The notes beneath the pieces were generated by a model, which saw only the letters and a list, made by a program, of their open reading frames with translations, did not search any database and had not been told where the DNA came from. Shown here piece after piece: positions 9,283 through 64,000 of a stretch of DNA of 64,000 nt. The stretch covers positions 7,177-71,176 of the forward strand of contig UZAN01039671.1 of NCBI GenBank assembly GCA_900618425.1. Reading direction: 5' to 3'. This stretch comes from Echinostoma caproni (Eukaryota; Platyhelminthes; Trematoda; Plagiorchiida; Echinostomatidae). Made by a program: the position numbers and the translations under genes. The first letter of the stretch is position 1; each line of letters starts with the position of its first letter.

Positions 9283-9337
9283 ATGCGGTTGGAAGCGATT
9301 TTATGGATTACACTGTGTGCGGCCTATTGTGATGCAA
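9283..9337 (+). CDS. MEG exon 1: signal peptide
   Basis: Eighteen codons plus one base: MRLEAILWITLCAAYCDA, then A before the donor GTAAGT. A basic residue at position 2, a hydrophobic core (AILWITLCAA) and small residues at the end make a typical cleavable signal peptide. The context AAACAATG has A at -3. The exon ends in phase 1, which fixes the frame for every later exon. The following intron (about 6.2 kb) holds a LINE fragment, two tRNA-like repeats and a diverged 1.9 kb repeat. An extra exon could be hidden in it (see 11323). Confidence 0.82.
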
Positions 9338-10289
9338 GTAAGTCCAACTGCGAAGCAATCAGTCGACCAGCTTGATCTATTTTGGGGGTGCGAATAAAAC
9401 TTTCGGGGCAACTGGTAGTGATGATGTATTCAGAGGACTGTTTTGAAAATACAACTCATTTCATTTTATGTACTGAGAAGTCATTTATCCACTGTCATGA
9501 ATCAATGTGTCCACTTGACACGAAACCGGCGCAGCGGTGTTTTCTTCACAGACTGTACAAATTGTCCCGAGTGTAAACTAAGAACTGTTCTCCATGTTCA
9601 TTTCATCGTTCAACTTGAACGGGGGGGGGTGGGATGGAAGGGGGACGTATATGTCACAGTTCGACAGAGGGATTAGAACAGATAAAAGGACCTGAACGAT
9701 CTCTAATGTTCTAACGTTTAGATTTGTTTGAAGGAAGCGACCATATACCATTATGCTTCCCAACCATTCACTTTATATTAAGAAACAATTATTGCAAATA
9801 TTGCTCGACTCCATGAGTATTAAACTTTTAATTATCGTAGTAACAAGTACAGAAAATATGTTAATCCATTTATTCTCTGTATCGATTACACTTCCTAGCA
9901 TGAATAATCTCAATAACTGGTGTGTTTGTCATAATCAAGACAACAACAGTTAATTGTTCCCTCGGACTGAAAATAACGTGTACCACTTATTTTCTGAGTT
10001 GAGTTCAAGAATCTTGAGAAATACTTTGTACTGTAATAAAACAATAGTGTATTAAATTCTATGTGTTTGTGAAATAAGTTCAATTTTCGATCCGTTTCAT
10101 CGTACACTTCAATAACATAAAACGAACTTCGCTGATCGCTGAAAAATTCATAATGCATACAAGCTTATTGAGAAGTTATAGAGAGGATAGAGATTAGGTC
10201 TGTTTCGGGAGACCCGGGGAAAAAAGGAACATTCACGGCGAACCGAGAATCCACAGTTCAACTGTGCATGTACACATTTTCAAGAATTC

Positions 10290-10990
10290 TGGTCTAAAAC
10301 GAAGTGACAGCATGATCGCCACTGCTGTCGGTTTGCTGACCTAGCCTTCGGTATCTCCAACCATCTAGTTTCGGGATCTTTTGAGCACCAACCCGGAAGA
10401 CGAAAGATACTTACTCCACCTAAACGCTCTGTGCTTTTATTCATGCTTCCTCTCAACCTAGTCGGCTGGCCTCCAGGTAGCTTGATGTAGTCTGCAGCGG
10501 CCACTGACAATACAACGAGAAGCGGAAGGCGACCTTTAGGTGTAGGAAAAACGTGTCCTAACCAATGTAGCTTATTGAGCTGAATTTGATATCCTAGTGA
10601 CTTGTTTTTATGTAACAAACCCGTTCACTTCATACCCCCCGCCAGCGACCAAACTGCAGAAGCATTGGTTGTAGACAATTTCCAGGCAACAAATGTCTTC
10701 TATCTGCAAATGCAAGGTCGCACAACCGTAAGGCAGAAATAGTCGTACAGGAGTGCAGTGTACGCTACGCTTTAGTGAAACGTCACTTCGTTGCCACAGG
10801 CGTTTCAGGCCTATGTACGCTGCTCGAGCTTTGGAAATGCGGACAGTCATCTCCTTTGATGCGCTTCCATCGTTGGTCACGCGGCTAATCAGGCAAGCGA
10901 GTTCATCAGCGTGCTCTGTTTCGCACAGCGTTTCTCCAGCTGCCCGTTCAATACCAACATTTTGGAAACCACCTAGTGCGTCCACCAGTA
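10290..10990 (-). mobile_element. LINE (RTE/CR1-type) reverse transcriptase C-terminal fragment
   Basis: Two overlapping minus-strand frames continue one another. The first (10608-10985) reads DGSASKEMTVRISKARAAY and then LFLPYGCATL. The second (10280-10618) reads LHWLGHVFPTP, GGQPTRL and QQWRSCC. These are the conserved tail motifs of trematode LINE pol proteins (ISKARAAF..LW..., LLYGCETW, WLGHVLRM, RWRSCCQ). The frame break near 10610 shows that it is a dead fragment. It lies antisense in intron 1. Related fragments lie at 29600, 38020 and 57975. Confidence 0.85.
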
Positions 10991-11322
10991 TTTTGGTTAT
11001 TAAGAAAATTGAATAGAAAAGACGATTTCATAGCGTGCAATGTAAATTGTTGATCCTGGCTTCCCTCAGTTATTTTCAAATAAACGAAGATTGAAACGTG
11101 TTCAATCTCATGGGCCCCTCATGTATATCCGAGATGTGAATCTCTGGACCACATGCTCGAGGCTATATTTATTATCACGAATATTAGAGCTATTACTGAT
11201 TGCTCGATTACTCAGTGGTTTACGGCAGTTGCTGAATAGAGAAGATATGTCCCATATAAATAGTTTATCCGGTAATTCAGACATATTTTCCAGTTTTTGT
11301 CATCTTACTCGGTACCTCGTAG

Positions 11323-11370
11323 GTCAGAGTGCAACATTCTGTGAGCGTATGAAGGAAGTTGCAATGTTCC
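11323..11370 (+). CDS. Candidate MEG exon (48 nt, alternative 18 nt)
   Basis: The acceptor CTCGTAG follows a T-rich tract. Two donors keep phase 1-1: GTGAGC after 11340 (18 nt) and GTAAGA after 11370 (48 nt). The 48-nt version reads QSATFCERMKEVAMF with no stop and ends in C, which joins exon 2 as CAG. A longer chance open frame covers the same region, so the absence of stops is weak evidence. Confidence 0.3.
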
Positions 11371-11648
11371 GTAAGAACTGGACAAATAGAATACATTGCA
11401 CTCGATCATAATTAGCTGAAGCATTCAGTTGACGTAATCTATTCCAAACTGTCCCCTAATATTTTCCATTCAAGGTCTAATCTGTGAGTTTCGAAGTATC
11501 ATGTTCCCGTCTAATCGGTTGCCGTGGTTTTACATAAATCAGTCAAAATTGAGTTATATATATTTTTATTTTACTTCCTTTTATTGGATACACAACGATA
11601 AAATTGTTAGGAACAGGGAAGGGGCCAATCAAAGGGCTGCCACGGGGA

Positions 11649-11726
11649 AAGTGGTGGTGGTGGGATTCGAACACACGTCCCTTGAGGTGATAATGTGGTG
11701 GCATTACCACTTGGTCACCACCGCCC
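11649..11726 (-). repeat. tRNA-derived SINE head
   Basis: On the minus strand an A-box-like TGACCAAGTGGTAATGCC is followed about 35 bases later by the B box GTGTTCGAATCCCAC. The acceptor stem does not pair properly, so it is a tRNA-like repeat and not a functional tRNA. A close relative lies at 47505-47585. Confidence 0.6.
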
Positions 11727-11854
11727 AAATTTTAATCATCTAATCTACTCATGTGTTTCTAGGACAGGTCAGTTCAAATTATAATCTGACTGCCCTCTAG
11801 TACGGGCAACATTTGCGATTCTGATGGCTACGTATGGATGAAGGGAATGCTAAC

Positions 11855-11925
11855 TCCGGCCCCCGGAAGTCGAACCCGTGCCACCTGGGTCAAAGCCAGA
11901 AATCCTAACCGCTAGACCAGGTGTG
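11855..11925 (-). repeat. tRNA-Glu-like pseudogene or SINE head
   Basis: The minus strand reads TGGTCTAGCGGTTAGGATT, then a 7-nt loop CTTTGAC closed by TCTGG/CCAGG, then GGGTTCGACTTCC. The body matches metazoan tRNA-Glu well. The loop would give anticodon TTG in place of TTC, and the acceptor stem is largely unpaired. I read it as a tRNA-Glu-derived pseudogene. Confidence 0.5.
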
Positions 11926-11939
11926 AAGAATATTGCCAA

Positions 11940-13280
11940 TCGATAACAATTGAACGTGGTGATTCATAGTTCTCTGGAGGGATTAATTTTAAGGGTGTAA
12001 TGAGTAAAAAGCACGGGAAAAATTTGCATGATTGCTTATGTCAATCAAATGAACATCCTTAAGCAGCAGGGACTCTAATCGAGTGCTCCATGAATGACAT
12101 AGAACAATACAGTAGTACGCATTCATTTGTAGAATCTTTTTGTCAGTAAAGAGAGACGTATTGAATTGCAGATTGTGAACAAACACATTTCAACTGCTTT
12201 TGGTTCCAAATCGTCTTTCGTGATTCTATGATACAATGCATTTATCAAAGACGCTTTCAAAAGCACGGCAATTAATTTGGAATTAATTTATTCATCTAAC
12301 CGATGCATTTGGTGCGCAAAGATTTCCACTTACAGTGAACTACTACAATGTTCAAGGGGCCTAAATTAGTATATTGAAGGAAACCTCTGTGTATGTGGGA
12401 TTTTGTTTTGTGCAATCTGTGAATGCATTCGTTACAATCAATAAAACTGAGCTCTTGTTTCTCTGTTGTAATTTCTGAAGAGTAGAACGGAGAAGCTACC
12501 TGGGGACAGTCATATACCATTGGTCTGTAAGACGGATGCACTCGTTTCGTAAAACGAGGCAATTTACATGTCGCAATGAAAAGGATCGATGCCAGAGCAG
12601 AAGTGAATGGAAAAATAAATACTGTTATAGTTTTGACCGGGTGACGGAATTTTAATGTTTACGGGCAAACTATAACCTGTGGAACAAAAGGTTTTGCTCC
12701 GCATTACTGCGGTTTCATTGATTTCAGTGTTTGCTGTTATCATAAATTTGTATAATCCTCATTGTATGATGAATTATTGCATACCCAGTACGGGGAAACC
12801 GCGTTTAATCTTATCTGCCGGTGCTGCATCGTCAGCTAACCAGAGGTTTCTCTATTTTTTTTATATTTTCCCTTCTTTGACAGTCTCGCCATGCTTTCCA
12901 CGTATGTTGTACCTTCAGTTCAACCATGAATCGGCAAAGTTTAGCAGATAATTTGGTTTCCCACATATCGATGTATTATTTTAGAAAAAAAGCAGGTATA
13001 GAATAATTCCATCCTCGATCTTCTCTCTGATGTGAATTCACAAAAAGTATTGCAAAAGAAGTCTAAATAAAATTGAAATACGTCTAAAAATTACTTCAAG
13101 CAATCCAACATTTTGATTATTATTCGACGTTCTTAGAAATCCGAGTATTGTCATTCAACACGTCAGAGCAATCTCGATTATTGCCAGTAAAATAAATTGC
13201 AATTTGTATCATTTGTTTCACAAACAGAACACAAAAATCAAATACATTTCAAATGGGCAACCGGAGAACTGAAATATTAG
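11940..13280. other. Intron 1 interior, nothing recognised
   Basis: AT-rich sequence with short open frames only. No repeat family, RNA gene or splice pair meeting the exon criteria was identified. Confidence 0.4.
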
Positions 13281-15195
13281 TAATTTTCTAGTATGCAGGT
13301 GCTGACCAAACTAGTGCAGCATCACCCTTATTTCGGAAATCCATTTCAGCTTGCAGATAAGTGCCTATGAACAAAGTGTATATATTCTGGACTTTTTCTC
13401 CAACATCTATGTTCTCAGTTCTTTTCCGTCACCGTTTGAATTTGCGCGACCTTTAATGTCGCGATAAAATTTGTAGTAAATCGAAAGTTACAGCTGTGAT
13501 TTAGAAAATAGTTTAGGCAAAGCAGCATGGGAGCTCATTCTTTTCAAAAGATGATTCCTGTTCCATGAGCGCTTGTCAAGTTGAGGACACTTATTCTAAA
13601 TTTCTGATCTCTTTTCATTCAATGAACAGTAAATAAGTAACTCAATGAAAATGTTTTCACTTAAATAAAATGATAAGTTATTTGGCTACAAATTACTCAT
13701 GCATTATCTACAGGACTGGAAGAACTGAATACATAGTCCGGGAAACACCAAGTTGATCATCGAAGGTTGACCTTGAGGTGTGCGGCTCGTTGAATAAACG
13801 TCCTGTAATGTCATCATACTCAAGCCGGATGAAAATTTCAAAATGTTTTGTCATACAATTGAAACCGAGAGGCAACTTAAACGAGACTCGCGAAAATCCG
13901 ATGGCTCCATTGGTGTCTTGTGAAAGCGCTCCGATTTGAACATAAGTCCAATTCGTTGCATGTTCAACGAAATGTCTCCATCAAAATATAAACCGATAGG
14001 GATAAAACCGGCTATATCAAAGTAAGATGATGGTTGTATTTGATCGCAGCAGCGAGGAGTTGCACAAAACCAATCTGCAGGATGATCCGGGCCGATTAAC
14101 CACTTCCCCCACGATTTCGTTCTGAAAATGGTGGAGCAATTTAAAATACAGCTGAGACCACGAGACATAAAGCCGTTATTGAATGCCCAACAAAGCATAG
14201 GTCGAATTGATTTTACCAAAAAATTCAAATCGCGTCACCCGCTTTTTGGCAATGGGTTTATCTCACTGGTGACCAACGAGTAATTCAGCGTATTCTAAAA
14301 GCTGATCTACCGAGCTAGTTTTCTAATGAATTTCTTTTTACCTGCCAAAAGAAGTCAATATTTGTCCTACCCAACGAGTTGGAATGGAAGTGTTTATTTA
14401 GCGCATTGTTGTTTGTCTCCTGCATACGCCAATGTGGACATAACGAAATTTCCTGCACTGATAAAGGAGGTTTTTGATAACTGTCACTCCCAAAATGCAT
14501 TCCCGGAAGTCATATTTTTCACATATGGAGTTTAGTATATCAGCTAGCTCAAGGTTGGTGGTAGAAAACGGTTAGACCTACATAAAGATTATTTTTGCAC
14601 ATTTATGCTGTTTCTCGAGTGGTCAAGTTCAATGTCAAATTCGTTCCATTACCACGCAGCAGCTGGGATTTTAATTTAATCAATAACTTTTCCCTCTATC
14701 AGAAACAGGAATAAGTTAGCTACGTTGCTATTGGTTGTCAGTGGTAAGGGTAAGCAGTGTATTAGAGGAAACTTGCAAATTCTGTTTGGCAGTCAACTTG
14801 GATGATTCCATGATAAAGCAACTGCCTCCAGTGCTCAAAAATGAAGGAGGACAAATAGAACATGAACGAGTTGAAAGTACAATAACTATATCAGGCCAAT
14901 GAGTCATTTTCATAAACATATTTTAGTTACGTTTTCTAGAGTGACTTTGTTATTTCACAACTGATGCACCAACCACCATTGTAAAAATCAAGGAATCGTA
15001 CATTTTATTGGCATATGGCTAACAGAAGTAATGATATATATGGGGATTTTATTAGATATGTTGCGTCTGATGGGGAGCACTAGCAGATCAATCAATCCCC
15101 CGTGAATGAAGCTGGAAGAACAAAGCATTTAGAGGACTAAATGTGATGAAAATCAGGATGTTGCACGAGTTTAGTCAATAACTTTATATGTTTTA
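13281..15195 (+). repeat. Diverged about 1.9 kb repeat, copy 1
   Basis: Aligns in the same orientation with 54056-55950 over nearly its full length. Shared anchors include CATCACCCT near 13322/54101, TAAGATGATGGTTG near 14022/54801, CTGCCTCCAGTGCTCAAAAA near 14822/55580 and ATGTGATGAAAATCAGGATG near 15140/55890. Open frames on both strands look alike between copies but are broken by frameshifts and stops (for example the minus-strand frame 13851-14228). I therefore read it as a transposon or segmental duplicate of unknown class. Confidence 0.75.
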
Positions 15196-15565
15196 AATGT
15201 AGTCAAATGTAACGCTATATCGTTTCGCTGCACATGTTCATAAACGAGCAGTTATTCGGTATACCACTCAATCACATTTATTATACTAACCTATTCCACC
15301 AGATACAGCCTATTGAATGATAGTCATCATAACCCTGTCGGTTATGATGCGCTTGGTAACAAACAACGATACCCGTGTGAAACTCACAGGTTTCCTTCTG
15401 TTCCGATAGAGGAAACCTCTATGAGCGACATTTGCATCTATTTTGCATACAATTACGGTGTCAATCTTCATTGGTAACTGCAAACTATAATTAATTTAAA
15501 CTGTTAGCTGAGTACCATTAAACCTTATTTCAAGTGCACTAATACTGACATTTTCAACCTTGCAG

Positions 15566-15592
15566 AGATGCCTGCAAATTCAAATGTAGCGC
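15566..15592 (+). CDS. MEG exon 2 (27 nt)
   Basis: The acceptor TTTTCAACCTTGCAG precedes the exon and the donor GTAAGT follows it. Phase 1-1: A from exon 1 plus AG gives Lys, then MPANSNVA, ending in C. A cryptic acceptor two bases further in (AG at 15566-15567) would break the frame, so 15566 is the chosen start. Confidence 0.75.
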
Positions 15593-18824: not shown

Positions 18825-18851
18825 TTCCGCCTTCCATTTATCTATGCAACG
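18825..18851 (+). CDS. MEG exon 3 (27 nt)
   Basis: Strong acceptor CGTTTCTGTTTTAG and donor G/GTAAGC. Phase 1-1: C plus TT gives Leu, then PPSIYLCN, ending in G. It adds a Pro pair and one Cys. The preceding intron is about 3.2 kb. Confidence 0.82.
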
Positions 18852-20751
18852 GTAAGCTGAGCACAAGCAAATAAACCATTGTTTCAGGAACTGTCAGAAA
18901 AATGTGTTAAACATGATAAAATTCGTGACACTAAATATTTTGCATCGTTTACGTTTTTTATTGAGATAAAAACCCCGTCATTACTTTCGGAGAAAATAAT
19001 GACATTTGCAAATTTTCATTATCGCACCTCCGATAATCACATGGCATAAGTCTGGAACCTTCTGGAAAATATTCCTACAAATCTGCCTGTTGACATTTAC
19101 TCCAAGTTACTCAGGATCGTCATTCCAAAAGACAGTCTCGTTGCGGCCACCATGTTTTGTCCCGGTTACGTATGCTACGCATCGTCTTTGATTCTTATCT
19201 TATCTCATCGAGTGATGCCCTTCATCTCTTCCACTTTTACTTGTGCATATTCCCAAACATTGTCTATGCTTTCACGTGAAACGATCTGTTTCCGATTTCG
19301 CAAAGTCCGCATGAACCAAATTGACACCCGTTTCTGGCACGGAAACCACTAGTCCTGTAATTATGACTGCGTTTATCTAAAAACTCATTCCCGGAAACTC
19401 GCTCTTTCAAATGTTGCCGTGGTTTTTCGTAGATTGCGGATCCGGTTTAGCTTGCACTCGCGTGCTCCACAAAGACCTGTGAAAATCGTTAGATCATTCG
19501 CATCCAGTGACTTCAACTATCTATCAAACAACGGTATTCATATCTTTTTGTTCCTTTAATCAATAAATCTTATTCCCATCTTTTGATAAGGTTTGCACCG
19601 GATTACAGTGTTTTTGATACATGCAACCGGCCTGAAGTCAGAAGATCACAGGGTGCGAATATTTACGTGCACTGATGAGGTACCAAGTCAAGGAGTGATA
19701 TCGGAATTGAACAGAAAAGTAGGAGCAAAACCAGTATGAAATGACAGAGGCAATTTTTTGAGGAAAACGCTCTCGCGGTAATTGGAAGCAAAATGCAAGA
19801 ACACATAATGAGAAAGGAATTTGAAAGGTGTAGATAACCCATGAAGGACATGAGCTAGCGTGAGACTGTCATTGACTCACACGGAAGCCACACAAATGGT
19901 CAATAGCACAAATCCTCCAGTATCGAGGATGTTGCGGTAAATAAGAGACGCTGATGAACAAAGTCAGCGTTTGTCAACTTTCAGGGGAAAAGGACAAGCA
20001 GGCCGCTGATGCCAAGAATTGCGACACTGAACGAGTGACTGAACGAGTCAAGTGTAAGCATCTGTTAGTGTTGGAAACATGCACGAGACAGGAATGATGT
20101 CAGGAAAGTGAGTGAGATTAATGGAATAGTATGTGTGGGGTAGCCAGTAAACAGAAACCCGGGCATTAGTGATTGAGTGGATTTGAGGACAATACTGTGT
20201 CACGCGGGCAAACGGGATTTCAACCAATCTGCACAGACCAATAATGGTTCTATACACTCAAGCATAGAACCGAACCGTGTGTTTCCGATCCTCTTTTCTC
20301 TGATTCCATCCTACAGTTTTCTTCATGTCTATATGACTTGCCTCATTTTTATACATCATGTCTGTCTATTTCACATTCCATGGGTAATGGGTAATCTGTC
20401 GTCACAATGAGCGATTTGGAAGAACTAATGAGAAATTGGTTCACAATTTTCTAATTGACTACAGAAATAAAACGCACTTGATCTAGAGTTTAGGGATATT
20501 GCCGAAAAAAACGAATCAACCTGCAAACGTTTCAATCGAACTTTTGAGAAGGGAATTTGCTACTTTGGGGGTCGCCAAGTCGCTGGCTAAAAATGAGATA
20601 GGTGATTAGTGCATTTGTTATACAAAACGCTTGCTCTCCCAAGTCAGTTGTATTTGAAAACTTTTTTTTCCCACTTATTAATTCCATGACAGTCAAGTCC
20701 ACATTTTAAGTAGACCTAAGCCCATGAGGAGTACAAATGTTCTAATTTCAG

Positions 20752-20778
20752 CGGCCCACTGCTATGAACCTAAAACAA
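20752..20778 (+). CDS. MEG exon 4 (27 nt)
   Basis: Acceptor TGTTCTAATTTCAG and donor A/GTGAGG. Phase 1-1: G plus CG gives Ala, then AHCYEPKT, ending in A. Same length and phase as exons 2 and 3, with one Cys. Confidence 0.78.
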
Positions 20779-22072: not shown

Positions 22073-22093
22073 ATATTCCAAGTTGCTCTGGAG
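22073..22093 (+). CDS. MEG exon 5 (21 nt)
   Basis: Acceptor CATTTCATTTCAG and donor G/GTAAGT are near consensus. Phase 1-1: A plus AT gives Asn, then IPSCSG, ending in G. One Cys. Confidence 0.82.
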
Positions 22094-22737: not shown

Positions 22738-22752
22738 GTGCTTGTGCCATTG
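22738..22752 (+). CDS. Candidate MEG exon (15 nt)
   Basis: GTGCTTGTGCCATTG sits between CTAG and GTAAGC, phase 1-1, coding ACAI after a split codon. The donor lies at the edge of an inverted repeat (22751-22830), so the match may come from the repeat. Confidence 0.33.
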
Positions 22753-23539: not shown

Positions 23540-23557
23540 GCGGTTGGAACGAGGGAT
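23540..23557 (+). CDS. MEG exon 6 (18 nt)
   Basis: GCGGTTGGAACGAGGGAT between TGTTTCTAG and GTAAGT. Phase 1-1: G plus GC gives Gly, then GWNEG, ending in T. The acceptor is preceded by a long CT-rich tract (23495-23525). Confidence 0.75.
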
Positions 23558-24562: not shown

Positions 24563-25612
24563 ATCGGTGGAGTATCAACAATTCCGCCGGAAGTATGACT
24601 GTTACCAGTTGAAACAGTTGGTGAAATGAGTGCTTGATTTCCGGACTACCTGAATGATGCGTTTTCACGAAAAAGCTTGATTGAAAAATGCCTGCAATAA
24701 GTGTGACGGAATCGGTGATTGCTTTATCTTAATTACACAGCACGTCTTCCAGCACCATAAGAGGTTCAACGAGACAACAACTGAGATATTTCGGTCGATT
24801 AATTTCGTTCAAAAGCAACCGCGTGAAGAACTACATACATCAAAATAAAAAACCCAAAGTAAAGGGCCCTCGAATGTGCTTGTTTTAGCCAGTGGTCCTT
24901 CCCACTCCCACGAGCAGTAATTGGTTAATCTGGCTGTCAGATATTGTGATTTAGAACGGGGAGAGGCGGAGGATCATCGGATGGTGAGTAATTTGACAAA
25001 CTGGTTTTCGGGTGATCGGGGGTTATGCAGGCCAATTCCCAACGAGATTCTCCAATTGGTGTGAATAAGTGACCTTAAACACGATGGAGACGTCAAACTG
25101 CTTCATTCCCACTCACTGTATGATCAAGTTTAACGGGTTATGAGACGATGGCACTTGCAAGGGTGACATTGCCGTTCTTTAGGCTATACTACGTTCCTCA
25201 ATTCTTCTACGGACAGAAACTAGAATTTGTATAATTAGTAGTGGAACAAGGTGCTTGCTAACAGGTGCGCATCGAGCTAAACGAACAATAGCAAACAGAA
25301 TCAACAATAGCAATTGATATGGAGAAAACTAATGGAGATATGGTGGATGAGAAGGTTAGTCAATAAAGTCGTGAAGAGACAGGGCGNGCTCAGAGTCAGT
25401 AAATTGTGGACGCGGTTCGTTGAGGTCATTATGGGTGACACCATTCAGGGCATCGTGTTGCTTCGAATTTGCCGGCGGTGTGTGTATGTGCAACCGGATA
25501 GAAGCAATGTTATGATAATCCTTTTAACTTAAGAAAATAATGTTTTCAAAAACGTAAGCTCCCCACACGACCCCAGAATTTCGATAGGACAAACCGAGTC
25601 GACTTTTGACAG

Positions 25613-27761: not shown

Positions 27762-27773
27762 CTTGCCAACAGC
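27762..27773 (+). CDS. MEG exon 8 (12 nt), Pro-Cys-Gln-Gln unit
   Basis: CTTGCCAACAGC between ATTACTTTGCAG and GTAAGC. With C from exon 7 it encodes Pro-Cys-Gln-Gln, ending in C. It is first of a run of 12-nt exons and differs from exon 9 at only two positions, which points to duplication. Confidence 0.8.
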
Positions 27774-28436: not shown

Positions 28437-28448
28437 CCTGCCAACAAC
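28437..28448 (+). CDS. MEG exon 9 (12 nt), Pro-Cys-Gln-Gln unit
   Basis: CCTGCCAACAAC between GTTACCTGACAG and GTGAGT. C plus CC gives Pro, then CQQ, ending in C. Near-identical to exon 8. The intron between them is 663 nt. Confidence 0.8.
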
Positions 28449-29459: not shown

Positions 29460-29471
29460 CTTGCAGTCATC
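29460..29471 (+). CDS. MEG exon 10 (12 nt), Pro-Cys-Ser-His unit
   Basis: CTTGCAGTCATC between CTCACTCCGCACAG and GTAAGT. C plus CT gives Pro, then CSH, ending in C. Third consecutive Pro-Cys-x-x unit. Confidence 0.75.
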
Positions 29472-30392: not shown

Positions 30393-30425
30393 ATGCATCT
30401 AGTGACTTCGTAAATCTATGTGATT
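30393..30425 (+). CDS. MEG exon 11 (33 nt)
   Basis: The acceptor TGTTTTTTTGATACAG is excellent and the donor GTAAGG is good. Phase 1-1: C plus AT gives His, then ASSDFVNLCD, ending in T. It interrupts the 12-nt series and contains one Cys. Confidence 0.75.
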
Positions 30426-30780: not shown

Positions 30781-30792
30781 CAGCACCGCAAC
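30781..30792 (+). CDS. MEG exon 12 (12 nt)
   Basis: CAGCACCGCAAC between TATTTTTTCCATAG and GTAAGT. T plus CA gives Ser, then APQ, ending in C. A second AG at 30782-30783 could give a 9-nt version that also keeps the frame (NAGNAG-like acceptor). Confidence 0.75.
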
Positions 30793-31621: not shown

Positions 31622-31633
31622 CCTGCGATAATG
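31622..31633 (+). CDS. MEG exon 13 (12 nt), Pro-Cys-Asp-Asn unit
   Basis: CCTGCGATAATG between ATCTTCACTTTCAG and GTAAGC. C plus CC gives Pro (or Ala after the candidate exon at 31506), then CDN, ending in G. Confidence 0.8.
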
Positions 31634-31814
31634 GTAAGCAATATATGTTTGTGTTTTGACACGTTATGTAACCAATGCAATTTTCTTACGGTGGATTTGC
31701 GATATTTGTCTGAGAATAGTTGAAGGATAACTGTAAGACGATATTTCACATCTATTGTTCAACATGCTGTTTGACAGATTCGAACTTCGTATTTCGATTG
31801 TGTTAAGTTCAGTT

Positions 31815-31990
31815 GTATCGGTGGGATTCGAACCCACGCACGGACGCTGCCTACACTTTTGTACAGCGTATGCTCTACGGGCTGAGCTATGAGGCCACGC
31901 CAATAGCACTGATCTTTTCACATTCGAATTAATCATCTAACTAACAGAGGCATATGACATCCACCAGTTATCGTGTAATTTCGATCACTG
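31815..31990 (-). mobile_element. tRNA-derived SINE (ACA-loop family), minus copy
   Basis: The minus strand shows GGCCTCATAGCTCAGCC, a loop GTACAAA and the T arm GTGGGTTCGAATCCCAC, so A and B boxes are clear. The acceptor stem is broken at its 3' side. The flank on the other side (TGATCTTTTCACATTCGAAT) is shared with 56455-56475. Same family as the inverted pair at 56361-56694. Confidence 0.75.
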
Positions 31991-33760: not shown

Positions 33761-33772
33761 TTTGCACCCAAC
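33761..33772 (+). CDS. MEG exon 14 (12 nt), Cys-Thr-Gln unit
   Basis: TTTGCACCCAAC between GAATTGATTTTAG and GTAAGC. G plus TT gives Val, then CTQ, ending in C. It shares the TGC-x-x-C plan of the 12-nt series. Confidence 0.78.
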
Positions 33773-34892: not shown

Positions 34893-34904
34893 CATGGAAC
34901 ATTT
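34893..34904 (+). CDS. MEG exon 15 (12 nt), Pro-Trp-Asn-Ile unit
   Basis: CATGGAACATTT between TGCCTAATTTTAG and GTAAGT. C plus CA gives Pro, then WNI, ending in T. Related to exon 17 (Pro-Trp-Asn-Cys). Confidence 0.75.
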
Positions 34905-36631: not shown

Positions 36632-36643
36632 CTTGTTCCCAAC
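36632..36643 (+). CDS. MEG exon 16 (12 nt), Ser-Cys-Ser-Gln unit
   Basis: CTTGTTCCCAAC between GTTCTGTCTTTAG and GTAAGT. T plus CT gives Ser, then CSQ, ending in C. Close in sequence to exon 14. Confidence 0.78.
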
Positions 36644-37292: not shown

Positions 37293-37304
37293 CGTGGAAT
37301 TGTC
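37293..37304 (+). CDS. MEG exon 17 (12 nt), Pro-Trp-Asn-Cys unit
   Basis: CGTGGAATTGTC between TTTTTTTAAATACAG and GTAAGT. C plus CG gives Pro, then WNC, ending in C. The intron before it is 649 nt. Confidence 0.78.
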
Positions 37305-40812: not shown

Positions 40813-40824
40813 CTGGCAATCCAC
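40813..40824 (+). CDS. MEG exon 20 (12 nt)
   Basis: CTGGCAATCCAC between TATTTTATCCTAG and GTGAGT. A plus CT gives Thr, then GNP, ending in C. The intron before it is only 219 nt, the shortest among the well-supported exons. Confidence 0.75.
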
Positions 40825-45091: not shown

Positions 45092-45121
45092 CACTATGCT
45101 GTCCACCGCCTTGCACACATA
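45092..45121 (+). CDS. MEG exon 22 (30 nt), Cys-Cys-Pro-Pro-Pro
   Basis: The acceptor ATAATTTTTTACAG is strong, as is the donor A/GTGAGT. Phase 1-1: G plus CA gives Ala, then LCCPPPCTH, ending in A. Three cysteines around a triple Pro fit the rest of the product. Confidence 0.82.
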
Positions 45122-48027: not shown

Positions 48028-48054
48028 CATCACCGGACTTGTCCGTTTTTCGAG
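48028..48054 (+). CDS. MEG exon 24 (27 nt)
   Basis: Acceptor CATTTTGTCTACAG and donor G/GTAGGT. Phase 1-1: C plus CA gives Pro, then SPDLSVFR, ending in G. No Cys. Confidence 0.78.
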
Positions 48055-52270: not shown

Positions 52271-52297
52271 CTCAATGTAACGGCCCATGTGATCAAT
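52271..52297 (+). CDS. MEG exon 26 (27 nt), paired Cys
   Basis: One of the best-supported exons: acceptor TTTTTCCGCCTTCTTATTCACAG shortened here to its last bases CTTATTCACAG, donor GTGAGT. Phase 1-1: A plus CT gives Thr, then QCNGPCDQ, ending in T. Two cysteines four positions apart. Confidence 0.85.
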
Positions 52298-52972: not shown

Positions 52973-52999
52973 CTTGTCAAGTACAATCATGCATTCCTG
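52973..52999 (+). CDS. MEG exon 27 (27 nt), paired Cys
   Basis: Acceptor TTTTCAATAACAG and donor G/GTACGT. Phase 1-1: T plus CT gives Ser, then CQVQSCIP, ending in G. An internal GTACAA at 52981 is out of phase as a donor. The intron before it is 675 nt and the one after it about 5.9 kb. Confidence 0.8.
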
Positions 53000-54055: not shown

Positions 54056-55950
54056 TTATACGTTAAGTAATATACAGGTATTGATCAAACTCGTGTAACA
54101 TCACCCTCATCTTGGAAATACATTTCAGTCTCCAATATAATACTTCTATATTGTTGGCTATGGCTAAAGTATATTTATTCGTGATTTTATCGCCCACTTC
54201 TTAGTTCTCTTCTATCGTCGTTTGAATTATCGTGACCTTGAGCGTTGCGATGCAATTTGTAGTAGATCGAAAGTTACAAATCAGATTTGAAAAGCAGTTT
54301 AGGCGAATCAGCGTGGCAGTTCATTCTTTTTAAAAGATGATTTCTGTTCCATTACAGTGTTCATTAAGTTGAGCACACTTATTCTTAAATTCCTTGTCTC
54401 TTTTAATTCAGTTCACATTAAATAATTAAGGTAATGAAAGTATTTCAACTTAGCTAAAGTGATCAGTTAACTGGCTACAAAATACCCAGGTAATATCTAC
54501 AATAGGGAAAGAACTAAAAACGTATTCCAAGAAAATACCAGTTTATCTTTGAAAAAGTACCTTGACGTGTGCGGCTCGTTGAGTTACTACCATATCCAAA
54601 CCGGATGAAAGAGTTGAAAGTTTTTGTCATATAATGGAAGTCTAGGGACCTCTTAATCAAGAGGCACATATATCCGATGATTCCGTTGGCGTCTTGTGGA
54701 AGTGCTTTCGTGTGAACATGAATCCAATTTGTTGCACATTCAACGAAATTTCTCCATGAAAACAAAAAAACCGAGAGGGAGAAAATGGGCTAGATCAAAG
54801 TAAGATGATGGTTGCATTTGATCGCAGCGGAGAAGAGTTCCACAAAACCTATCTGCAGGATAGTCCAGGCTGATTAATCGTTTTTCCCTCACGTTTTCTT
54901 TTGGAAAATGATGGTGCAATTTAAAGTGCAGATGAGGCTACCTAATATAAAGCAACAACCATCAAATCATGGTGCGTAATGATTTTACCAACAAATGCAG
55001 ATAGCGCCATCCGTCAATCAGTCAAAGGGCTCATCTCACTGGTGGTCAAACGGTAATTCAGTATATGGAGAAAGCTGATTTACTGAACTAGTTTGCTAAT
55101 AAAAAATAAAGAAGTACACATTCATCCCTGACGAACTAAGACGGAAGTAAATACTGAATGATTTTGTATTGATCTCCTGTACGCACCAGGCTGGATATCG
55201 CAAAATGTTTTTGCATTGCTGAGGGAGTTTGTCCGTAACTGCTGCTCTTCAACTGCATTCAAGGAAGGTATATTTTTCAGAGATGAAGACTGGTATATCA
55301 TCGCGCTTGGAGTTTGTGGCAAAAAACTGTTAGACCTAATCCATTGTTAATTTTTCACACTTATCCAGTCCCTAGAGGGGTGAAGTTCAACGTCAAATTC
55401 ATTTAAATACCGCGCAGCACCTGAGATTTTAATTTGATCAAAAACGTTCTACTGTATCAGAAACAGGGATGTCAGTTGTCTCGAAATTGGTCGTCAATGA
55501 TTAGTGTGTGTGTGTGTGTATTACAGTAAACTGGTGAATTCTATTTAGCAGTGAACTAAGTGGATTGCATGCTAAAGTTACTGCCTCCAGTGCTCAAAAA
55601 TGGAGAAGAGCTAATGGAACATGAACGAGATGAAAGTGCAATACCTATACGAAGTCTACGGGTCATTTCAATTAAAACACTTTCTAGTTACGTTTTCTAC
55701 TGTTAGTTTGTTATTTTACATTCGATGCACCAGCAACCATCGTCCAAATCGCGAAATCGTGCATTTTACTGGCATTCAGCTCATAGCAGCAAATACATAA
55801 GTGGGTATTATATCAGATATGTTCCGATTGGTGTGAGTGAATATTACATTCAATCCCGTGCACGAGGCTGAAATAACGAAGCATTGTGAGGAACGAATGT
55901 GATGAAAATCAGGATGTTTCACGAGTTTCGTTAATAGCTGTATGTTTTGC
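54056..55950 (+). repeat. Diverged about 1.9 kb repeat, copy 2
   Basis: Direct-orientation partner of 13281-15195 (shared anchors given there). A (GT)n run at 55501-55518 interrupts it. Frames are more broken here than in copy 1. Confidence 0.75.
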
Positions 55951-55957: not shown

Positions 55958-56002
55958 ATGTATGCATATATATAAATATATAGATATATATATATATATA
56001 GA
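55958..56002. repeat. (TA)n-rich microsatellite
   Basis: Interrupted TATA repeats at the end of the 1.9 kb repeat copy. Confidence 0.8.
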
Positions 56003-56360
56003 TCTGTTTGCAGACGTTTTATCATCATCATCCATCAAAGAGCGGCCAATAGATAATAACAACCAGGAAATTTGATCGATGGAAAGCAAACACTACCATT
56101 CAAATTTAGAGTATCAAGTTGGATTATCCCATTCGATTGTTGAGAAGCACCAGGCACTCGTAATGGTCTTGGGTGTGTGTCACTCCTTAGAAGCACGTTA
56201 AATACCCTCTAGTTGAATGCACTAAAATTCGATGGAAATACTTGTGATAACCGGCAAATACATATATATGTGCATATATCCCTAGTTTTTAGACCAGAAT
56301 GTGTGACAAATAAATAATGGTACAATAATTTTTGTATGTCGCTTGTGAAAAGATCAGTAA

Positions 56361-56694
56361 CCTCGGTGGAATTGGAACCCACATATGGACGACGCCTACG
56401 CTTTGCCTACGCGAAGGCTTTACAGGCTGAGCTACGAGGCCACACCGATAGTACTGATCTTTTCACATTCGAATTTACCCATCCAATTTACAGAGGCATA
56501 TGGCATCCACCAGTTAGCATGTAAGCTGACTGCCCCGACAGGTTTCCCTTAGAATTCGCCGGAGTCCCCTGAATGAGCTTCTTCGAATGTGAAAATATCA
56601 GTGCTATCGGTGTGGCCTCGAAGCTCAGCTGGTAGAGCGTGCGCGTACAAAGCGTGGGCGGCGTTCATGCGTGGGTTCGAATCCCACCGAGGCC
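56361..56694. mobile_element. Inverted pair of tRNA-derived SINE heads (ACA-loop family)
   Basis: A minus-strand tRNA-like unit (about 56361-56443) and a plus-strand unit (56614-56694) face each other. The complementary flanks (TGATCTTTTCACATTCGAAT at 56455 and its complement near 56582-56601) extend the foldback. Both belong to the family at 31815. Confidence 0.75.
56614..56694 (+). repeat. tRNA-like sequence with intact acceptor and T arms
   Basis: The acceptor stem GGCCTCG/CGAGGCC pairs perfectly (56614-56620 with 56688-56694). The T arm GTGGG/CCCAC encloses TTCGAAT. The D arm is GCTC/GAGC. The anticodon stem TGCGC/GCGTG has two wobble pairs, with the loop GTACAAA giving anticodon ACA. 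The variable region is about 14 nt, longer than usual. I read it as a well-preserved SINE head, not as a working tRNA-Cys. Confidence 0.6.
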
Positions 56695-56784
56695 TCTGAA
56701 CGTTGTACAATCTCGACATACAAACTTCAAATCTGCCAAACAACAATTTGAACAATAATCTATATAAAAGAACGTTCCACGATC

Positions 56785-58936: not shown

Positions 58937-58963
58937 CGTTTAGCGAATACACAAACGGACCAC
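58937..58963 (+). CDS. MEG exon 28 (27 nt)
   Basis: Acceptor AATTTATTCAATCAACAG and donor C/GTAAGT. Phase 1-1: G plus CG gives Ala, then FSEYTNGP, ending in C. Confidence 0.75.
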
Positions 58964-59627
58964 GTAAGTTCTTTTCTTATGCAACTATTGCATCACAAAT
59001 GGGTTAAGTAGTTTGAACAGGATAAAAAAAGTCGGTGTTTAATTTGCCTGACGAAATAAAACGCAGTCAACCATACATGACACAACTCAAAGTGATTGAA
59101 CTCACTCACGAAAGCAAGGTGTTGATTTTGTTGTATGAGTTTACGTGATGCGTTGCGGTCAAACATTTCCTATTTCATCCGATTAGTCAAAGCTTTCGTC
59201 AGAAATTTCATTGATTTCCAAATGCAAAGTAGTGACAGAATTTGTGTAAGATGGCAAAACGGACACAAACATGGCGGAAATGCGTCGTGTTTCATTTTAA
59301 CTAAAGCTCATCACAGTCTTTCTCTGAAATGATAAGCTACCGCATTTATTCTGGAAAGTTATATCAAGGTCAGTTTTTTTTATTCGTGCTGGGAACACGC
59401 TGGGAACAATTTATCATCAGTATCAGGGACTGAAACGCATGTGATTCACTTCCGTGGCATTTGGTTCACCATCATTTAGTTTCATTACAAATATAAACCT
59501 TACTTCCTGTGGCGTTAATTTCGGAGTCGGGAAAATCTGTTCAACTTTCAAGTAGTCCACCCAAGAAATCTGTTGTTTTAAAAAAATGTCTTGGAACCGA
59601 ATTGGTGATTTTTCAATCGTGGTTCAG

Positions 59628-59672
59628 TTTTACGTGTTCAGCAAAACAACACACACACACACGGTATTTCAG
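59628..59672 (+). CDS. MEG exon 29 (45 nt)
   Basis: Very strong donor CAG/GTGAGT and good acceptor TTTTTCAATCGTGGTTCAG. Phase 1-1: C plus TT gives Leu, then LRVQQNNTHTHGIS, ending in G. It includes a short CA microsatellite that encodes Thr-His, so it could be a chance frame. Confidence 0.5.
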
Positions 59673-59679
59673 GTGAGTC

Positions 59680-61320
59680 ACGCAAACACCGCTGACACAT
59701 AGAACCCTCTTCGTTCGACCGGCATAGATTACAGCAGTAGAGGCAAAACAAAATCTATGATGTGAAAAATACTTCTCGTGCAAAACTTCGCACTTCCAGA
59801 TACTCGAGAAATAGTGCACTGCGGATGTGGAAGTTCAATACGCTTAATATCGAAATCGTTTGCATCGACATAGGCTGATCCCGCCACTTTATTTCAAATT
59901 AGAACTGTAAGGAAGTTAATAATCTTATAGGATGGATAAAAAACGAACATAATTTTTTTTAATTTAGTTGTATGTACCATGGCTCCTTGTTGTTGGAACA
60001 ACATAGAAACACATGGGCTCTCCGAAATCACATCGTGAATGAGTTTATTTGACGTTCAGATTTAGGAGTGATTGACCCTTGTCGGAGATAGTATCTGGAA
60101 CGACCACAACACGGTGAACAGTGAAAAGCCGGGCCCCAGCTGCGTTGGTTTCTTGATCGCGAAACATGAAAATGTTTTTGCATTCCCAAACTAGACGATC
60201 AAAAATCTGGCTTTTACTCTTTCTCTCTCCTTAATTCTTCGATTTCTTATGGGTGGCAAATACCTAGCGTCACATAAAAGGGGTCTCGGGATTTTGATGG
60301 TCAGACCGAACACGGATAAATTGTATCCCGCAATCAGCAATATTTCAATGCTACTTTGAGTGTTGTTTTACATGTACGCCAGCTTCTATCCTTGATGACT
60401 TCATTGTTGGGCAGTTTTTGGCAGTCGTTTATTATTTCCTATGCGCATTAGTACCTGTTCGCAAATGTTAGGAAGCACGCTATTTGGTCGTGTTTAATTG
60501 AACGATAGGTGAGCATTGTTTTTATTTTTAGGGGATGTTTTGTCTGTTCTCCAAGCTTAACAATCTGTTTCCAATCATTACATTACCAGCCCAGTTGATA
60601 TTGTCAGTGCTTGGGAAGTGGACGATTTAAGAGTGTGTTCCAGTGCCGCTAAGTATTCCGTATTTGTGGTTTTTATGAGATTGAAGTGTTAAGTCTTTTA
60701 ATGCCGATTCCTATGTCATCCTCTATGATCAGGTTGTTGGAGAGAATGCGGATCCGATTTTCTTTTTTATATCGGTTCGCAGATGATTATCCGACGTGCG
60801 AGGTCTTCTTGACAGAGCCAGTTTTGTGCATTCCTTTGATATTTTTGTCACCTCGATTGCCACAGTCACAGACAATAACGATTTCACCTGGACTGGGAGT
60901 GAATAAATTGCGAAGCACGGTGAACAGCCAAAATTGAGTTCAGTTTATCCGAGCTGCGAAAACCGGTTTTGAGTGCTTTTGAATATAATGTTAGGGCGGG
61001 AAACGCGATCGATTGTTTGGATGCCATACAACACAGAGATTATAAGGAAAGTAGGGCACTGGTTATGAGACTCGAACAAATAATGAAAATCTTATGATCA
61101 TAATCGCTCGAGCAGCACTGTAATAAACCAAGCATGATCTGAACTATGCTCAACCAATTTCAATGTTGCTGAATAATCACTTGTGCCATGCACACCGGTT
61201 ATTATTGATTTCTTTATTCGGTTGAACCAATGACTTTCAGATTCGAATTATCACGTATTTTGATCACTTTTGCAATCATATCACTAATGCGTCACTGGTT
61301 TTTTTTAATTTTTCCTGTTA
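59680..61320. other. Intron interior, nothing recognised
   Basis: No repeat family identified. Two strong acceptors or donors (GTGAGC at 60507, TTTTTAG at 60533) lack an in-phase partner without stops. Confidence 0.4.
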
Positions 61321-61324
61321 TCAG

Positions 61325-61351
61325 CCAGCTCTGGATGTTCGTCTTGCTCAG
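61325..61351 (+). CDS. MEG exon 30 (27 nt), paired Cys
   Basis: Acceptor TTTTTCCTGTTATCAG and donor G/GTAGGT. Phase 1-1: G plus CC gives Ala, then SSGCSSCS, ending in G. Cys-x-x-Cys spacing. Confidence 0.82.
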
Positions 61352-62007
61352 GTAGGTTTTGTGTCTTCGTCTTCTCCTGCTTCATCAACAGGTGCTCTCT
61401 CTCTGACTTTTAGATCTCAGGATCAAACTGTATTTTTTTAACTTTATGACCAGGAGTAACATATTCACAGTTAATTCAGAGTCTTTTTTGAGTATCCTTA
61501 TGCAATCAATAATATTTATTATAACTGATAACACGGTAGACTTCATCTGCACGTGAATTTAACCGTTTTCCCGGTAAACCATAAACTCTGGAGGTATCAA
61601 GTTCCAGGTCGTTCTCGCTGGAGTAGCTTACAATGCACACAGAGTTCCTAACACCGAACAAGGCGGTAGACAACCACAATTGATGAACTGCAAGTGGAAC
61701 GAAAGTTAGGCTTGATTGATTGGATTCAATAACTACCATGAGTGAATACGACATTTGAAGAAGTGAATAACGCAGTTACTGCAAAGTAAACTTTACAGGC
61801 TTGTTATGAAAAATATAATTTATAATACTGTGCGGTCGTTTGCAATCACATCGAAGAATCTGACATAATGATAATCAGCTAATGTAGTTATTATATGGTG
61901 AGATTGGAAAAAAGGAACGAATGCACCGTCCAGTTGTCCTTTGACTAGGCCTGAATGTGCTTTAATTTGCATTTGTTCGATACTTTAATTGATTTTGTCC
62001 TCTTCAG

Positions 62008-62019
62008 CGTGCCATGGGG
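62008..62019 (+). CDS. MEG exon 31 (12 nt), Ala-Cys-His-Gly unit
   Basis: CGTGCCATGGGG between TTTTGTCCTCTTCAG and GTACGT. G plus CG gives Ala, then CHG, ending in G. A 12-nt exon outside the main array, with the same x-Cys-x-x plan. Confidence 0.75.
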
Positions 62020-62513
62020 GTACGTTCTAACTACATGTTTTTCTGTATCCGATGCATAGCATTCACGTTAAACAACGCAGGTCATTCATTTTCCATTTCT
62101 CTGAAGCTAATTAGTAAATTACCATTTACCAGAAATCTAACTAACTCTGAATTTCTACAATGTTCAATAAACTGAATTGACTGCTTATGGAGAGAAGGCA
62201 AACCGTTTGTACCAGACCAAGCATCAATAGTTTTGCGTAGAGCTTTGTACACAAGTGATTAAACAATTGAAATATGTGTCCAACTGTCAGCCACAAAACG
62301 CAACCTATATTTATCAATCAAGTACGTAAGCCGACTTGAGAGGTTGACCACGTATAGTTGATTAGTTAATTCAGTGCGATTTGAAATACGTGATGCGATT
62401 GCCTGAGTTTAACTAACCCAACTGATAAAAAGTAGGCAATAAGACGTACTGAACGATCAGATTCATTGCTCAGCAACTGATGAGTTGTGCATATTCACTT
62501 TTGTTCCTTCTAG

Positions 62514-62540
62514 GTTGCAGCGCATGCACAAGTAGTTCAC
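62514..62540 (+). CDS. MEG exon 32 (27 nt), paired Cys
   Basis: Acceptor CTTTTGTTCCTTCTAG and donor C/GTACGT. Phase 1-1: G plus GT gives Gly, then CSACTSSS, ending in C. Similar in composition to exon 30. Confidence 0.82.
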
Positions 62541-63870
62541 GTACGTTAAAGTATAATAATCAAAAGCTTATTCTCAATACGCACGTTAGAAGCTGGTAAT
62601 TTATACTTGGAGATGATTTGGATCTCTAGTATGTGACTTTCGTAGATAACTTGGTAATCGATCAATGAACAACTTCCAACTTAGATATGCCTGGTTAACT
62701 TCGTGGTATGCTTTATATTTTAACTCACCTATCAAAGAAACGACAATTTAAAAGGGGGAAGTATTACGGTACTACTACTCGCAAGTAGTAAGAAACCAAA
62801 TCGAACCAAATGTCAACCGATCAAAGCGATACAGTGAATGTCATGGGCTGGATAAACCCCGGAATTTTCCTTAAGGAAGAAAACGCACAAATCTACTACT
62901 ATTTTTACGAAATAAATATGTCTTTGTATGGAGATATGTTTTCGAAAAGCGCACTTGAGTTGCTTAGTATACCAGGTTCCTGTTTCGCACAGATCAACCA
63001 AAAAAACCTAGTGCAATGATCATTTCGAGACAAAGATTGATCTGTTCGGAAGAAACCTTGCTAACGTCAGCTATATATACGAGTTGAACAATGTATCCAC
63101 GTATATACTTTTGAGTTCAAAATACTTCACCTATTTTAAGTTGTCGTGGCTCAGAGGTCTATATCCCCTGTCAGTTACATCTTGACAGAAAACAGGCTCC
63201 CGCGGAACCGGTCAAATTAGACATACCAGTCGACAGTTACCTAAAACACCTGGTTGTGAAACGGACTTGCCACAGTGATCCGGAGGGCATTAATGAAGTG
63301 TCTGATCAAAAGTGAATCATTTTGTAGCGGTCATCTTACGTCATCTACGGAAACTAAAGCACCGGCCTAACCAAAGCAATAGCCATTCAGATCAACAACT
63401 CCGCATTGTACACAGTCTGACTCTATTCACACTTTGAAATGGCCATTGCCATTCGATGTGACACAAGCGCATTTGGTTTAAATCCCCAGGAAAAATTGGA
63501 ATACTTTAGTCATACAAAGATTCAACTCAACTGAGCACAACTTATTGACAACACCGTCTACTCCATTTGAAGAGTCAATCCTGACTGCTGTTGTTACTTT
63601 GCGATCGCATAAGAATGTATACGCCTCAGAATGAATTATCGAATAGAAATCGTATGAAGTCTTTTTAAGGGAGTACAGATACCAGATGAATAAAATAAAA
63701 AGAAAAGTATCACGTCTGAATCCGAATAACGGAATGAAACTGTACCGGTTTGGCCCTGAACGATAGATAAGCTGAACAGAGTTGGTGAATAAATATGCGC
63801 TGAATGTCACGTTTTATGCCTAACCCGTACGTGGATCATCAGCATACTATCTCCTTCTTTACTCTTTTAG

Positions 63871-63897
63871 AGTATTGCGGAGGTTCTGGCCGCTCAG
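63871..63897 (+). CDS. MEG exon 33 (27 nt), last in window
   Basis: The acceptor CTCCTTCTTTACTCTTTTAG and donor CAG/GTAAGC are near perfect. Phase 1-1: C plus AG gives Gln, then YCGGSGRS, ending in G. The frame is still open, so the gene continues past 64000. Confidence 0.85.
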
Positions 63898-64000
63898 GTA
63901 AGCGGTTTTCTTTAAATTCAAAATGATCTGATTTATACTGAAATTCTTTCACACTTATCTGTGAACTGAACTATTCCTTCCAAAACAAAAGCAACTTCAG

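What the first reader, a model, noticed from the sequence alone, without database searches (positions are those of the whole stretch)
9283..64000. A giant micro-exon gene: at least 33 exons, about 757 coding nt over more than 54 kb
Directly seen: a signal-peptide exon ending in phase 1, then a series of AG-exon-GT units of 12-48 nt, every one a multiple of three and open in the single phase set by exon 1. Known: micro-exon genes with this plan exist in schistosomes and other parasitic flatworms. Unusual here is the number of exons, the dominance of 12-nt exons and the size of the introns. ORF-based annotation would call this region empty.
Basis: partly seen in the sequence, partly recalled or inferred. 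Interest (0 to 1): 0.97.

Follow-up and report, generated by a model that had tools for sequence, protein, structure and literature searches.

The report
Giant fluke micro-exon gene, partly seen
A parasite-flatworm-like genome carries what looks like one very large gene whose secreted, cysteine-rich protein is written in dozens of tiny exons, mostly 12 or 27 letters long and spread over more than 80,000 bases, a kind of gene that ordinary annotation misses.

Summary
From window 9283 onward the plus strand has an excess of short symmetric AG-exon-GT units that the minus strand lacks. Two lengths, 12 and 27 nt, carry it (8 and 10 units at a fixed splice score; 100 shuffles gave at most 3 and 4). 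Read in the phase set by the 55-nt signal-peptide exon, well-scoring units have no stops and are Cys-rich; the other phases are not. I list 27 exons in the window (574 nt), not 33, some with weak sites. The gene does not end there: the next 34 kb of the contig repeat the pattern (21/4/4 units of length mod 3 = 0/1/2 with an untrained score). A working list is 45 exons over 83.7 kb; the 3' end was not found. The 426.5 Mb assembly is probably a trematode's, on one eggshell-domain hit. Motif searches found no second such array. Best reading: a micro-exon gene (MEG), a known flatworm kind, unusually large and built on 12- and 27-nt Cys modules. No transcripts were available: splicing, variants and function are inferred.

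The parts
9283..9337 (+). First coding exon, 55 nt, signal-peptide-like, donor gtaagt, ends after codon base 1
   Evidence: the only phase-1 first-exon-like unit in the window by the criteria; one match in the assembly for a 201-base query around it
12884..12901 (+). Possible extra exon, 18 nt (not in core list)
   Evidence: score 14.0 untrained, 14.1 trained
15566..15592 (+). Micro-exon, 27 nt
18825..18851 (+). Micro-exon, 27 nt
19985..20053 (+). Possible exon, 69 nt (not in core list)
20752..20778 (+). Micro-exon, 27 nt
22073..22093 (+). Micro-exon, 21 nt
   Evidence: score 19.4
22738..22752 (+). Micro-exon, 15 nt (medium support; chosen with residues in view)
23540..23557 (+). Micro-exon, 18 nt
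25217..25264 (+). Possible exon, 48 nt (not in core list)
27762..27773 (+). Micro-exon, 12 nt, Cys at codon 1 (untrained score 10.4)
28437..28448 (+). Micro-exon, 12 nt, Cys at codon 1
29460..29471 (+). Micro-exon, 12 nt, Cys at codon 1
30393..30425 (+). Micro-exon, 33 nt (medium support; chosen with residues in view)
30781..30792 (+). Micro-exon, 12 nt
31622..31633 (+). Micro-exon, 12 nt, Cys at codon 1
33761..33772 (+). Micro-exon, 12 nt, Cys at codon 1 (weak by untrained score 6.4, 15.5 by trained score)
   Evidence: raised by the trained matrix before it was used for training
34893..34904 (+). Micro-exon, 12 nt (untrained 8.7, trained 18.2)
   Evidence: raised by the trained matrix before it was used for training
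36632..36643 (+). Micro-exon, 12 nt, Cys at codon 1
37293..37304 (+). Micro-exon, 12 nt (untrained score 10.5)
40813..40824 (+). Micro-exon, 12 nt
45092..45121 (+). Micro-exon, 30 nt, three Cys (chosen with residues in view)
48028..48054 (+). Micro-exon, 27 nt
52271..52297 (+). Micro-exon, 27 nt
52973..52999 (+). Micro-exon, 27 nt (medium support)
58937..58963 (+). Micro-exon, 27 nt (medium support)
61325..61351 (+). Micro-exon, 27 nt
62008..62019 (+). Micro-exon, 12 nt, Cys at codon 1
62514..62540 (+). Micro-exon, 27 nt
63871..63897 (+). Micro-exon, 27 nt; last listed one in the window; the series continues to at least contig position 100203 (contig = window + 7176)

Best explanation
This is one large micro-exon gene, most probably of a trematode (fluke). 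Shown by sequence statistics: after a signal-peptide-like exon come dozens of short exons (12-42 nt in my list), each a multiple of three, each entered after the first base of a codon, with canonical splice sites and introns of 0.3-6.2 kb. Inferred: the primary transcript of more than 84 kb is spliced into a small mRNA for a secreted protein rich in Cys, Ser, Pro and Gly. Because almost any listed exon can be left out without changing frame or making a stop, alternative splicing probably yields many variants. Most 12-nt exons add one four-residue Cys module, so skipping them would change the number of evenly spaced cysteines (C-x-x-x-C spacing). The product is most likely a gland or surface secretion at the host interface, as for known flatworm MEG proteins; a disulphide-linked structural secretion is the main alternative role.
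For: Excess of symmetric short units on one strand only, beyond shuffles. Untrained score at thr 13: 22/4/5 in the window part and 21/4/4 downstream, against 6/6/10 on the minus strand and 11/6/10 and 11/6/13 on the strands of control stretches from other contigs (10 of 12 stretches with letters, 68.7 kb). Blind phase and Cys test. Blind 12-nt test: 6 of 10 plus-strand units at thr 12 have Cys at codon 1, minus strand 0 units; p = 2.3e-07 at 2/61 and 8.3e-06 at the contig's own rate of 20/331. Out-of-sample continuation: trained score thr 13, 13/0/1 downstream; length 27 thirteen times at thr 11, minus strand once. 0 stops at the 44 adjacent junctions and 18 among 990 ordered exon pairs. 12-nt exons resemble each other (5.52 of 12 positions against 3.14, sd 0.21; part of this comes from splice scores that read the exon ends). 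TES domain over its cut-off in the assembly.
Against: No RNA evidence at all. The 3' end was not found. Weak sites: by the untrained score 8 of 26 window exons are below 13 and 4 below 11; downstream 7 of 18 and 4 of 18. Several seeds were chosen with residues in view, and trained counts inside the window are circular. Downstream the Cys signal is weaker: 13 Cys of 148 residues and 2 stops in phase 1, against 5 of 169 (9 stops) and 8 of 148 (8 stops); the listed exons from about contig 84964 on are Cys-poor and could belong to another gene. The trained matrix also finds minus-strand units downstream (4/0/5 at thr 13), and 27-nt units occur in the control stretches (3 on the plus strand at trained thr 13). 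At the laxer untrained thr 11 the control stretches are 27/14/24 and 22/18/22, so symmetric units are not rare as such. Introns show no similarity between units, so exon duplication is not demonstrated. The clade rests on one domain hit in a Gly/His/Lys-rich frame; the control genomes that names are all bacteria and archaea, so '0 of 14 controls' does not discriminate between animals. The first 7,176 bases of the contig read N.
Confidence: 0.82

Rival explanations
1. Two or more micro-exon genes in tandem, the first starting at 9283 and a later one contributing the downstream 27-nt exons.
For: The 5', middle and 3' parts differ in commonest exon length (27, 12, 27 nt) and in Cys content; a weak second phase-1 first-exon-like unit lies at contig 100381-100462.
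Against: All listed exons share one phase; between contig 16514 and 100380 no other phase-1 first-exon-like unit was found by the criteria, which are simple and could miss one; 12-nt Cys exons recur at window 62008 and contig 76383 among the 27-nt exons.
Confidence: 0.2
2. The series is chance: AG-n-GT units are common and a reader can always pick symmetric open ones.
For: Individual weak units are expected by chance: 11 to 14 pairs in each asymmetric class at thr 11 in the window; two candidates were repeat copies.
Against: Strand, length, phase and composition tests and the downstream repeat of the pattern.
Confidence: 0.03
3. A pseudogenised or unexpressed remnant of a micro-exon gene.
For: No expression data; repeats lie in the introns; 3' end not found.
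Against: 0 stops in the 147 phase-1 residues inside the 26 window exons (not blind) and 0 in 118 in the blind set; 15 of 44 donors are GTAAGT and 8 GTGAGT.
Confidence: 0.08
4. A real gene of this structure whose product is a constant structural secretion (for example of cyst wall, eggshell or gland), all exons always included, rather than a generator of variants.
For: 39 Cys, 36 Ser, 27 Pro of 290 residues inside exons suit a cross-linked secretion; no splicing data exist.
Against: Frame-neutral exons throughout, as in schistosome MEGs for which protein variants from alternative splicing are reported (PMC5825161, PMC4350168, PMC8293314, passages).
Confidence: 0.3

Closest known systems
Schistosoma mansoni micro-exon genes (MEGs)
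   Same: Signal-peptide exon, series of very short symmetric exons with long introns, secreted product, transposable elements enriched around the genes.
   Different: Reported S. mansoni MEGs have 10 to 20 very short exons, mostly 15 nt, introns up to almost 5 kb; head-enriched MEGs encode proteins averaging about 10 kDa. Here 45 predicted exons, mostly 12 and 27 nt, over 83.7 kb on one contig, Cys-rich. Sequence homology was not tested.
Tapeworm MEGs (Echinococcus multilocularis, Hymenolepis microstoma)
   Same: Structural class as defined in PMC7653826; one Hymenolepis family has a conserved stretch beginning MRL and containing ACPKQCP, i.e. C-x-x-x-C spacing.
   Different: Resemblance of start and spacing only; homology not tested.
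Aphid bicycle and megacycle genes
   Same: Putative secreted effectors from many micro-exons; almost all internal bicycle exons start at codon position 2, as here; megacycle has more than 100 micro-exons, in one species 118 exons over about 100 kb (PMC9168663, passages).
   Different: Insects; no homology claimed or tested. A likely convergent architecture.

Membership tests
Flatworm micro-exon gene (structural class) | At least 7 exons, micro-exons (<70 nt, divisible by 3) at least half, run of at least 4 (PMC7653826) | tested here: met
   Predicted exons only: 26 of 27 core window exons are symmetric and at most 33 nt, in one series; not verified by RNA
Flatworm micro-exon gene (structural class) | Signal peptide mostly or wholly in the 5' exon (PMC4671649) | tested here: met
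   9283-9337, hydrophobic core 7 of 9 by a simple rule of mine; no dedicated signal-peptide predictor was available
Flatworm micro-exon gene (structural class) | Long 3' terminal exon with stop | tested here: inconclusive
   One search lists 76 candidate terminal exons, no chance expectation was computed and none stands out; the contig ends at 105,304
Flatworm micro-exon gene (structural class) | Protein variants by exon skipping | not testable with these tools
   Frame allows it (18 stop junctions in 990 ordered pairs); no transcripts held
Flatworm micro-exon gene (structural class) | Parasitic flatworm genome | tested here: inconclusive
   PF08034 (TES) once over its cut-off, 30.4 against 24 bits, in a Gly/His/Lys-rich frame; COX1 not found in the assembly; hammerhead ribozymes on the contig. 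Probable, not proven
A named S. mansoni MEG family | Sequence homology of product | not tested
   No MEG sequences were fetched and the joined product was not built
Aphid bicycle/megacycle | Aphid genome and bicycle-type sequence motif | not tested
   Only architecture was compared, from passages; the motif spacing was not among the passages seen

The most novel reading that the evidence does not exclude
A single-copy 'mega-MEG': one fluke gene of 45 or more micro-exons that makes a disulphide ladder of variable length, each 12-nt Cys exon being one C-x-x-x module that can be skipped without breaking the spacing, so that exon choice sets the number of modules. It would be the flatworm counterpart of the aphid megacycle gene, an independently evolved giant micro-exon gene for secretions into a host.
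Probability: 0.3. Interest if true: 0.75.

Novelty: new variant of a known kind. Interest (0 to 1): 0.6.

Why it matters
A 2021 review still described micro-exon genes as seemingly restricted to schistosomes (PMC8293314, passage), while a 2020 genome paper counts them in tapeworms (PMC7653826, passage). A gene of this size would show how much coding sequence gene finders can miss in such genomes, and its two favoured exon lengths make a clean test of how 12-nt exons are recognised and whether these worms use exon choice to vary secreted proteins.

Tried and rejected
Chance as explanation of the whole series: rejected by strand, length, phase and downstream tests. Exon candidates 56494 and 31948: rejected, inside repeat copies. 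Recent duplication of exon plus intron: no intron similarity between units beyond overlaps of neighbouring flanks, the repeat pair and one 17-base match. 27-nt exons as one homologous family: mean pair identity 8.19 of 27 over 21 units against 6.93 in controls (sd 0.18), but the best single pairs (16 of 27) lie within what control samples reach (mean maximum 13.9, maximum 24), so only a group-wise resemblance. Upstream TGC motif: 17 of 44 against a control fraction of 0.31, no clear excess; branch-point-like CTRAY at -60 to -15: 11 of 44 against 0.15, weak. Terminal exon: not resolved. Two transposon-like ORFs searched among predicted proteins for species hints: no hits; one also against PDB, no hits. 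Pfam on 8 ORFs of the window: reverse-transcriptase-type matches in 2 (one below its curated cut-off), nothing in 6. COX1: not in the assembly. A glutathione transferase search to place the species more exactly did not complete. In one search the untrained score used a background that counted N, which made its thresholds laxer; the counts used are those.

Literature: listings for MEGs in other flukes, for tapeworm and bird-schistosome MEGs and one uninformative listing (whose six papers do not hold the term micro-exon genes) showed no title or abstract reporting such a gene in a non-schistosome fluke. Only open-licence papers are held, one search showed 15 of 2,635 papers, and I saw passages of eight papers (one section whole), no whole text; DeMarco 2010 was not held.
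Full report
What was claimed.

Is it there? Exon 1 (9283-9337) is a 55-nt open unit with an initial Met, a hydrophobic core and a gtaagt donor, ending after the first base of a codon; 15566-15592 follows in frame. I then scored acceptor-donor pairs with a hand-set metazoan splice matrix (recalled, not fitted to this genome). In 9338-64000, for lengths 6-36 and sum >= 11, the plus strand has 38/14/11 pairs with length mod 3 = 0/1/2 and the minus strand 14/11/14. Two lengths make the excess: 12 nt (8 units) and 27 nt (10 units) at acceptor >= 5, donor >= 4.5, sum >= 11.5, while the other lengths of 6-60 average 0.9 and the minus strand has 0 and 2. In 100 dinucleotide shuffles the maxima were 3, 4 and, for any length, 5.

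Is the frame meaningful? For non-overlapping units chosen by score only (thr 13, 9-36 nt), the 20 symmetric plus-strand units hold 17 Cys in 118 residues and no stop in phase 1; in the other phases 2 Cys of 138 with 3 stops and 3 of 118 with 9 stops. There are only 4 and 3 asymmetric units, and the minus strand has 4, 6 and 4; its 4 symmetric units have 3 Cys of 34 and 1 stop in phase 1. At thr 11 the test gives 22 Cys of 218 and 2 stops in phase 1 for 35 symmetric units, so some of those are chance. Taking 12-nt units of the contig by score, 6 of 10 at thr 12 have Cys as first whole codon and the minus strand has no unit; over all 331 plus-strand AG-N12-GT units whatever their score it is 20. 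The chance of 6 of 10 is 2.3e-07 at 2/61 and 8.3e-06 at 20/331.

How many exons? A matrix trained on 23 seeds (several picked with residues in view) raised three further units, 33761, 34893 and 58937. My core list is exon 1 plus 26 internal exons, 574 nt: eleven of 12 nt, ten of 27 nt, five others. By the untrained score 18 of the 26 reach 13 and 22 reach 11. So 33 is not supported item by item; 12884, 19985, 25217, 39883 and 40582 among others remain possible. 56494 and 31948 fall in repeat copies and are rejected.

Outside the window. The window is contig C728:7177-71176 of a 426,516,399-base assembly in 12,689 contigs; the contig is 105,304 bases long and its first 7,176 bases read N. The 34 kb downstream, never used for training, give 13/0/1 plus-strand pairs of at most 36 nt at trained thr 13 (minus 4/0/5), length 27 thirteen times at thr 11 (minus once), and 21/4/4 with the untrained score at thr 13. 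The same untrained score gives 22/4/5 in the window part, 6/6/10 on the minus strand over 88 kb, and 11/6/10 and 11/6/13 on the two strands of control stretches of other contigs (120 kb, of which 68.7 kb are not N and two stretches are wholly N); at thr 11 the controls give 27/14/24 and 22/18/22. The Cys signal downstream is weaker: 13 of 148 residues with 2 stops in phase 1, against 5 of 169 with 9 stops and 8 of 148 with 8 stops, over 21 symmetric units. I list 18 downstream exons, 483 nt, of which 11 reach 13 and 14 reach 11 by the untrained score. Together 45 exons span 83,745 bases, introns 345-6,228 with median about 1.26 kb. The 3' end was not found among 76 candidates.

One gene or more? 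All listed exons share one phase. In the contig, the only other phase-1 first-exon-like unit by my simple rule is at 100381-100462, beyond the last listed exon. None of the 44 adjacent junctions makes a stop, and of all 990 ordered exon pairs 18 do, so nearly any subset keeps the frame. A tandem of two genes cannot be excluded without cDNA.

Is it unique in this genome? A pattern drawn from the 12-nt Cys exons occurs 8 times in the assembly (the reversed-pattern control 14 times); 3 of the 8 lie within 1.7 kb here and the other five on five other contigs. A 27-nt pattern shared by 61325 and contig 72297 and 74596 has those 3 exact matches and no other exact one (50 with up to 2 mismatches, control 55). 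These patterns were taken from the gene, so its own hits are by construction; the news is the absence of a second cluster, in an assembly part of which reads N. A 201-base query around exon 1 has one match. More diverged relatives would escape these searches.

Whose genome? A TES (trematode eggshell synthesis) domain passes its Pfam cut-off once, 30.4 against 24 bits, in a Gly/His/Lys-rich frame. None of 14 control genomes has it, but the controls that names are bacteria and archaea, so this does not discriminate between animals; that TES is confined to trematodes is recalled from its name. Type I hammerhead ribozymes recur on the contig, which I recall from fluke retroelements but also from other animals. 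The GC content of about 40 percent is above what I recall for Schistosoma. The species was not determined.

How it probably works. Shown: architecture, phase, composition. Inferred: a long transcript is spliced into a short mRNA for a secreted Cys-rich protein. Each 12-nt exon contributes three whole codons and shares one junction codon; with Cys as first whole codon in 8 of 12 listed 12-nt exons, neighbouring such exons place cysteines four residues apart. Skipping one would remove one module and keep the spacing. In schistosomes such exons are reported as the means of making protein variants exposed to the host (PMC5825161, PMC4350168, PMC8293314, passages), and one MEG protein, MEG-8.2, is reported to lyse host cells (PMC12998952, abstract and summary passages). 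Whether anything alike happens here needs RNA and protein work.

What is known. S. mansoni MEGs: 10 to 20 very short exons, mostly 15 nt, introns to almost 5 kb (PMC10526429). Tapeworm MEGs and the structural definition: PMC7653826. The aphid megacycle gene, more than 100 micro-exons, 118 exons over about 100 kb in one species (PMC9168663), shows that a giant micro-exon gene for secretions has arisen elsewhere; almost all internal bicycle exons too start at codon position 2. The present gene is therefore best called a new and extreme variant of a known kind, not a new kind.

Noticed in passing
window 398-441 (-); L004 4214-4258 (-) and 4441-4485 (+); L005 6660-6704 (+): Type I hammerhead ribozymes above the Rfam gathering score, possibly in retroelement copies.
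   Followed up: no
window 56331-56757 and 31753-31978: A dispersed repeat of about 80 percent identity overlapping a tRNA-Cys-like unit at 56614-56696; it carries splice-like sites that mimic a 27-nt exon.
   Followed up: partly
window 13289-15194 and 54068-55948: Two copies of a 1.9 kb repeat at 72 percent identity between listed exons.
   Followed up: no
window 2902-3387 (-) and 5654-6022 (+): Reverse-transcriptase-like (below the Pfam cut-off) and RT RNase H (above it) fragments upstream of the gene.
   Followed up: partly
contig 100381-100462 (window coordinate 93205-93286, beyond the window): A second weak signal-peptide-like first exon with a phase-1 donor just past the last listed exon; possible start of a neighbouring gene.
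   Followed up: no
contig 1-7176: The whole stretch before the window reads N, so the 5' neighbourhood could not be inspected.
   Followed up: no
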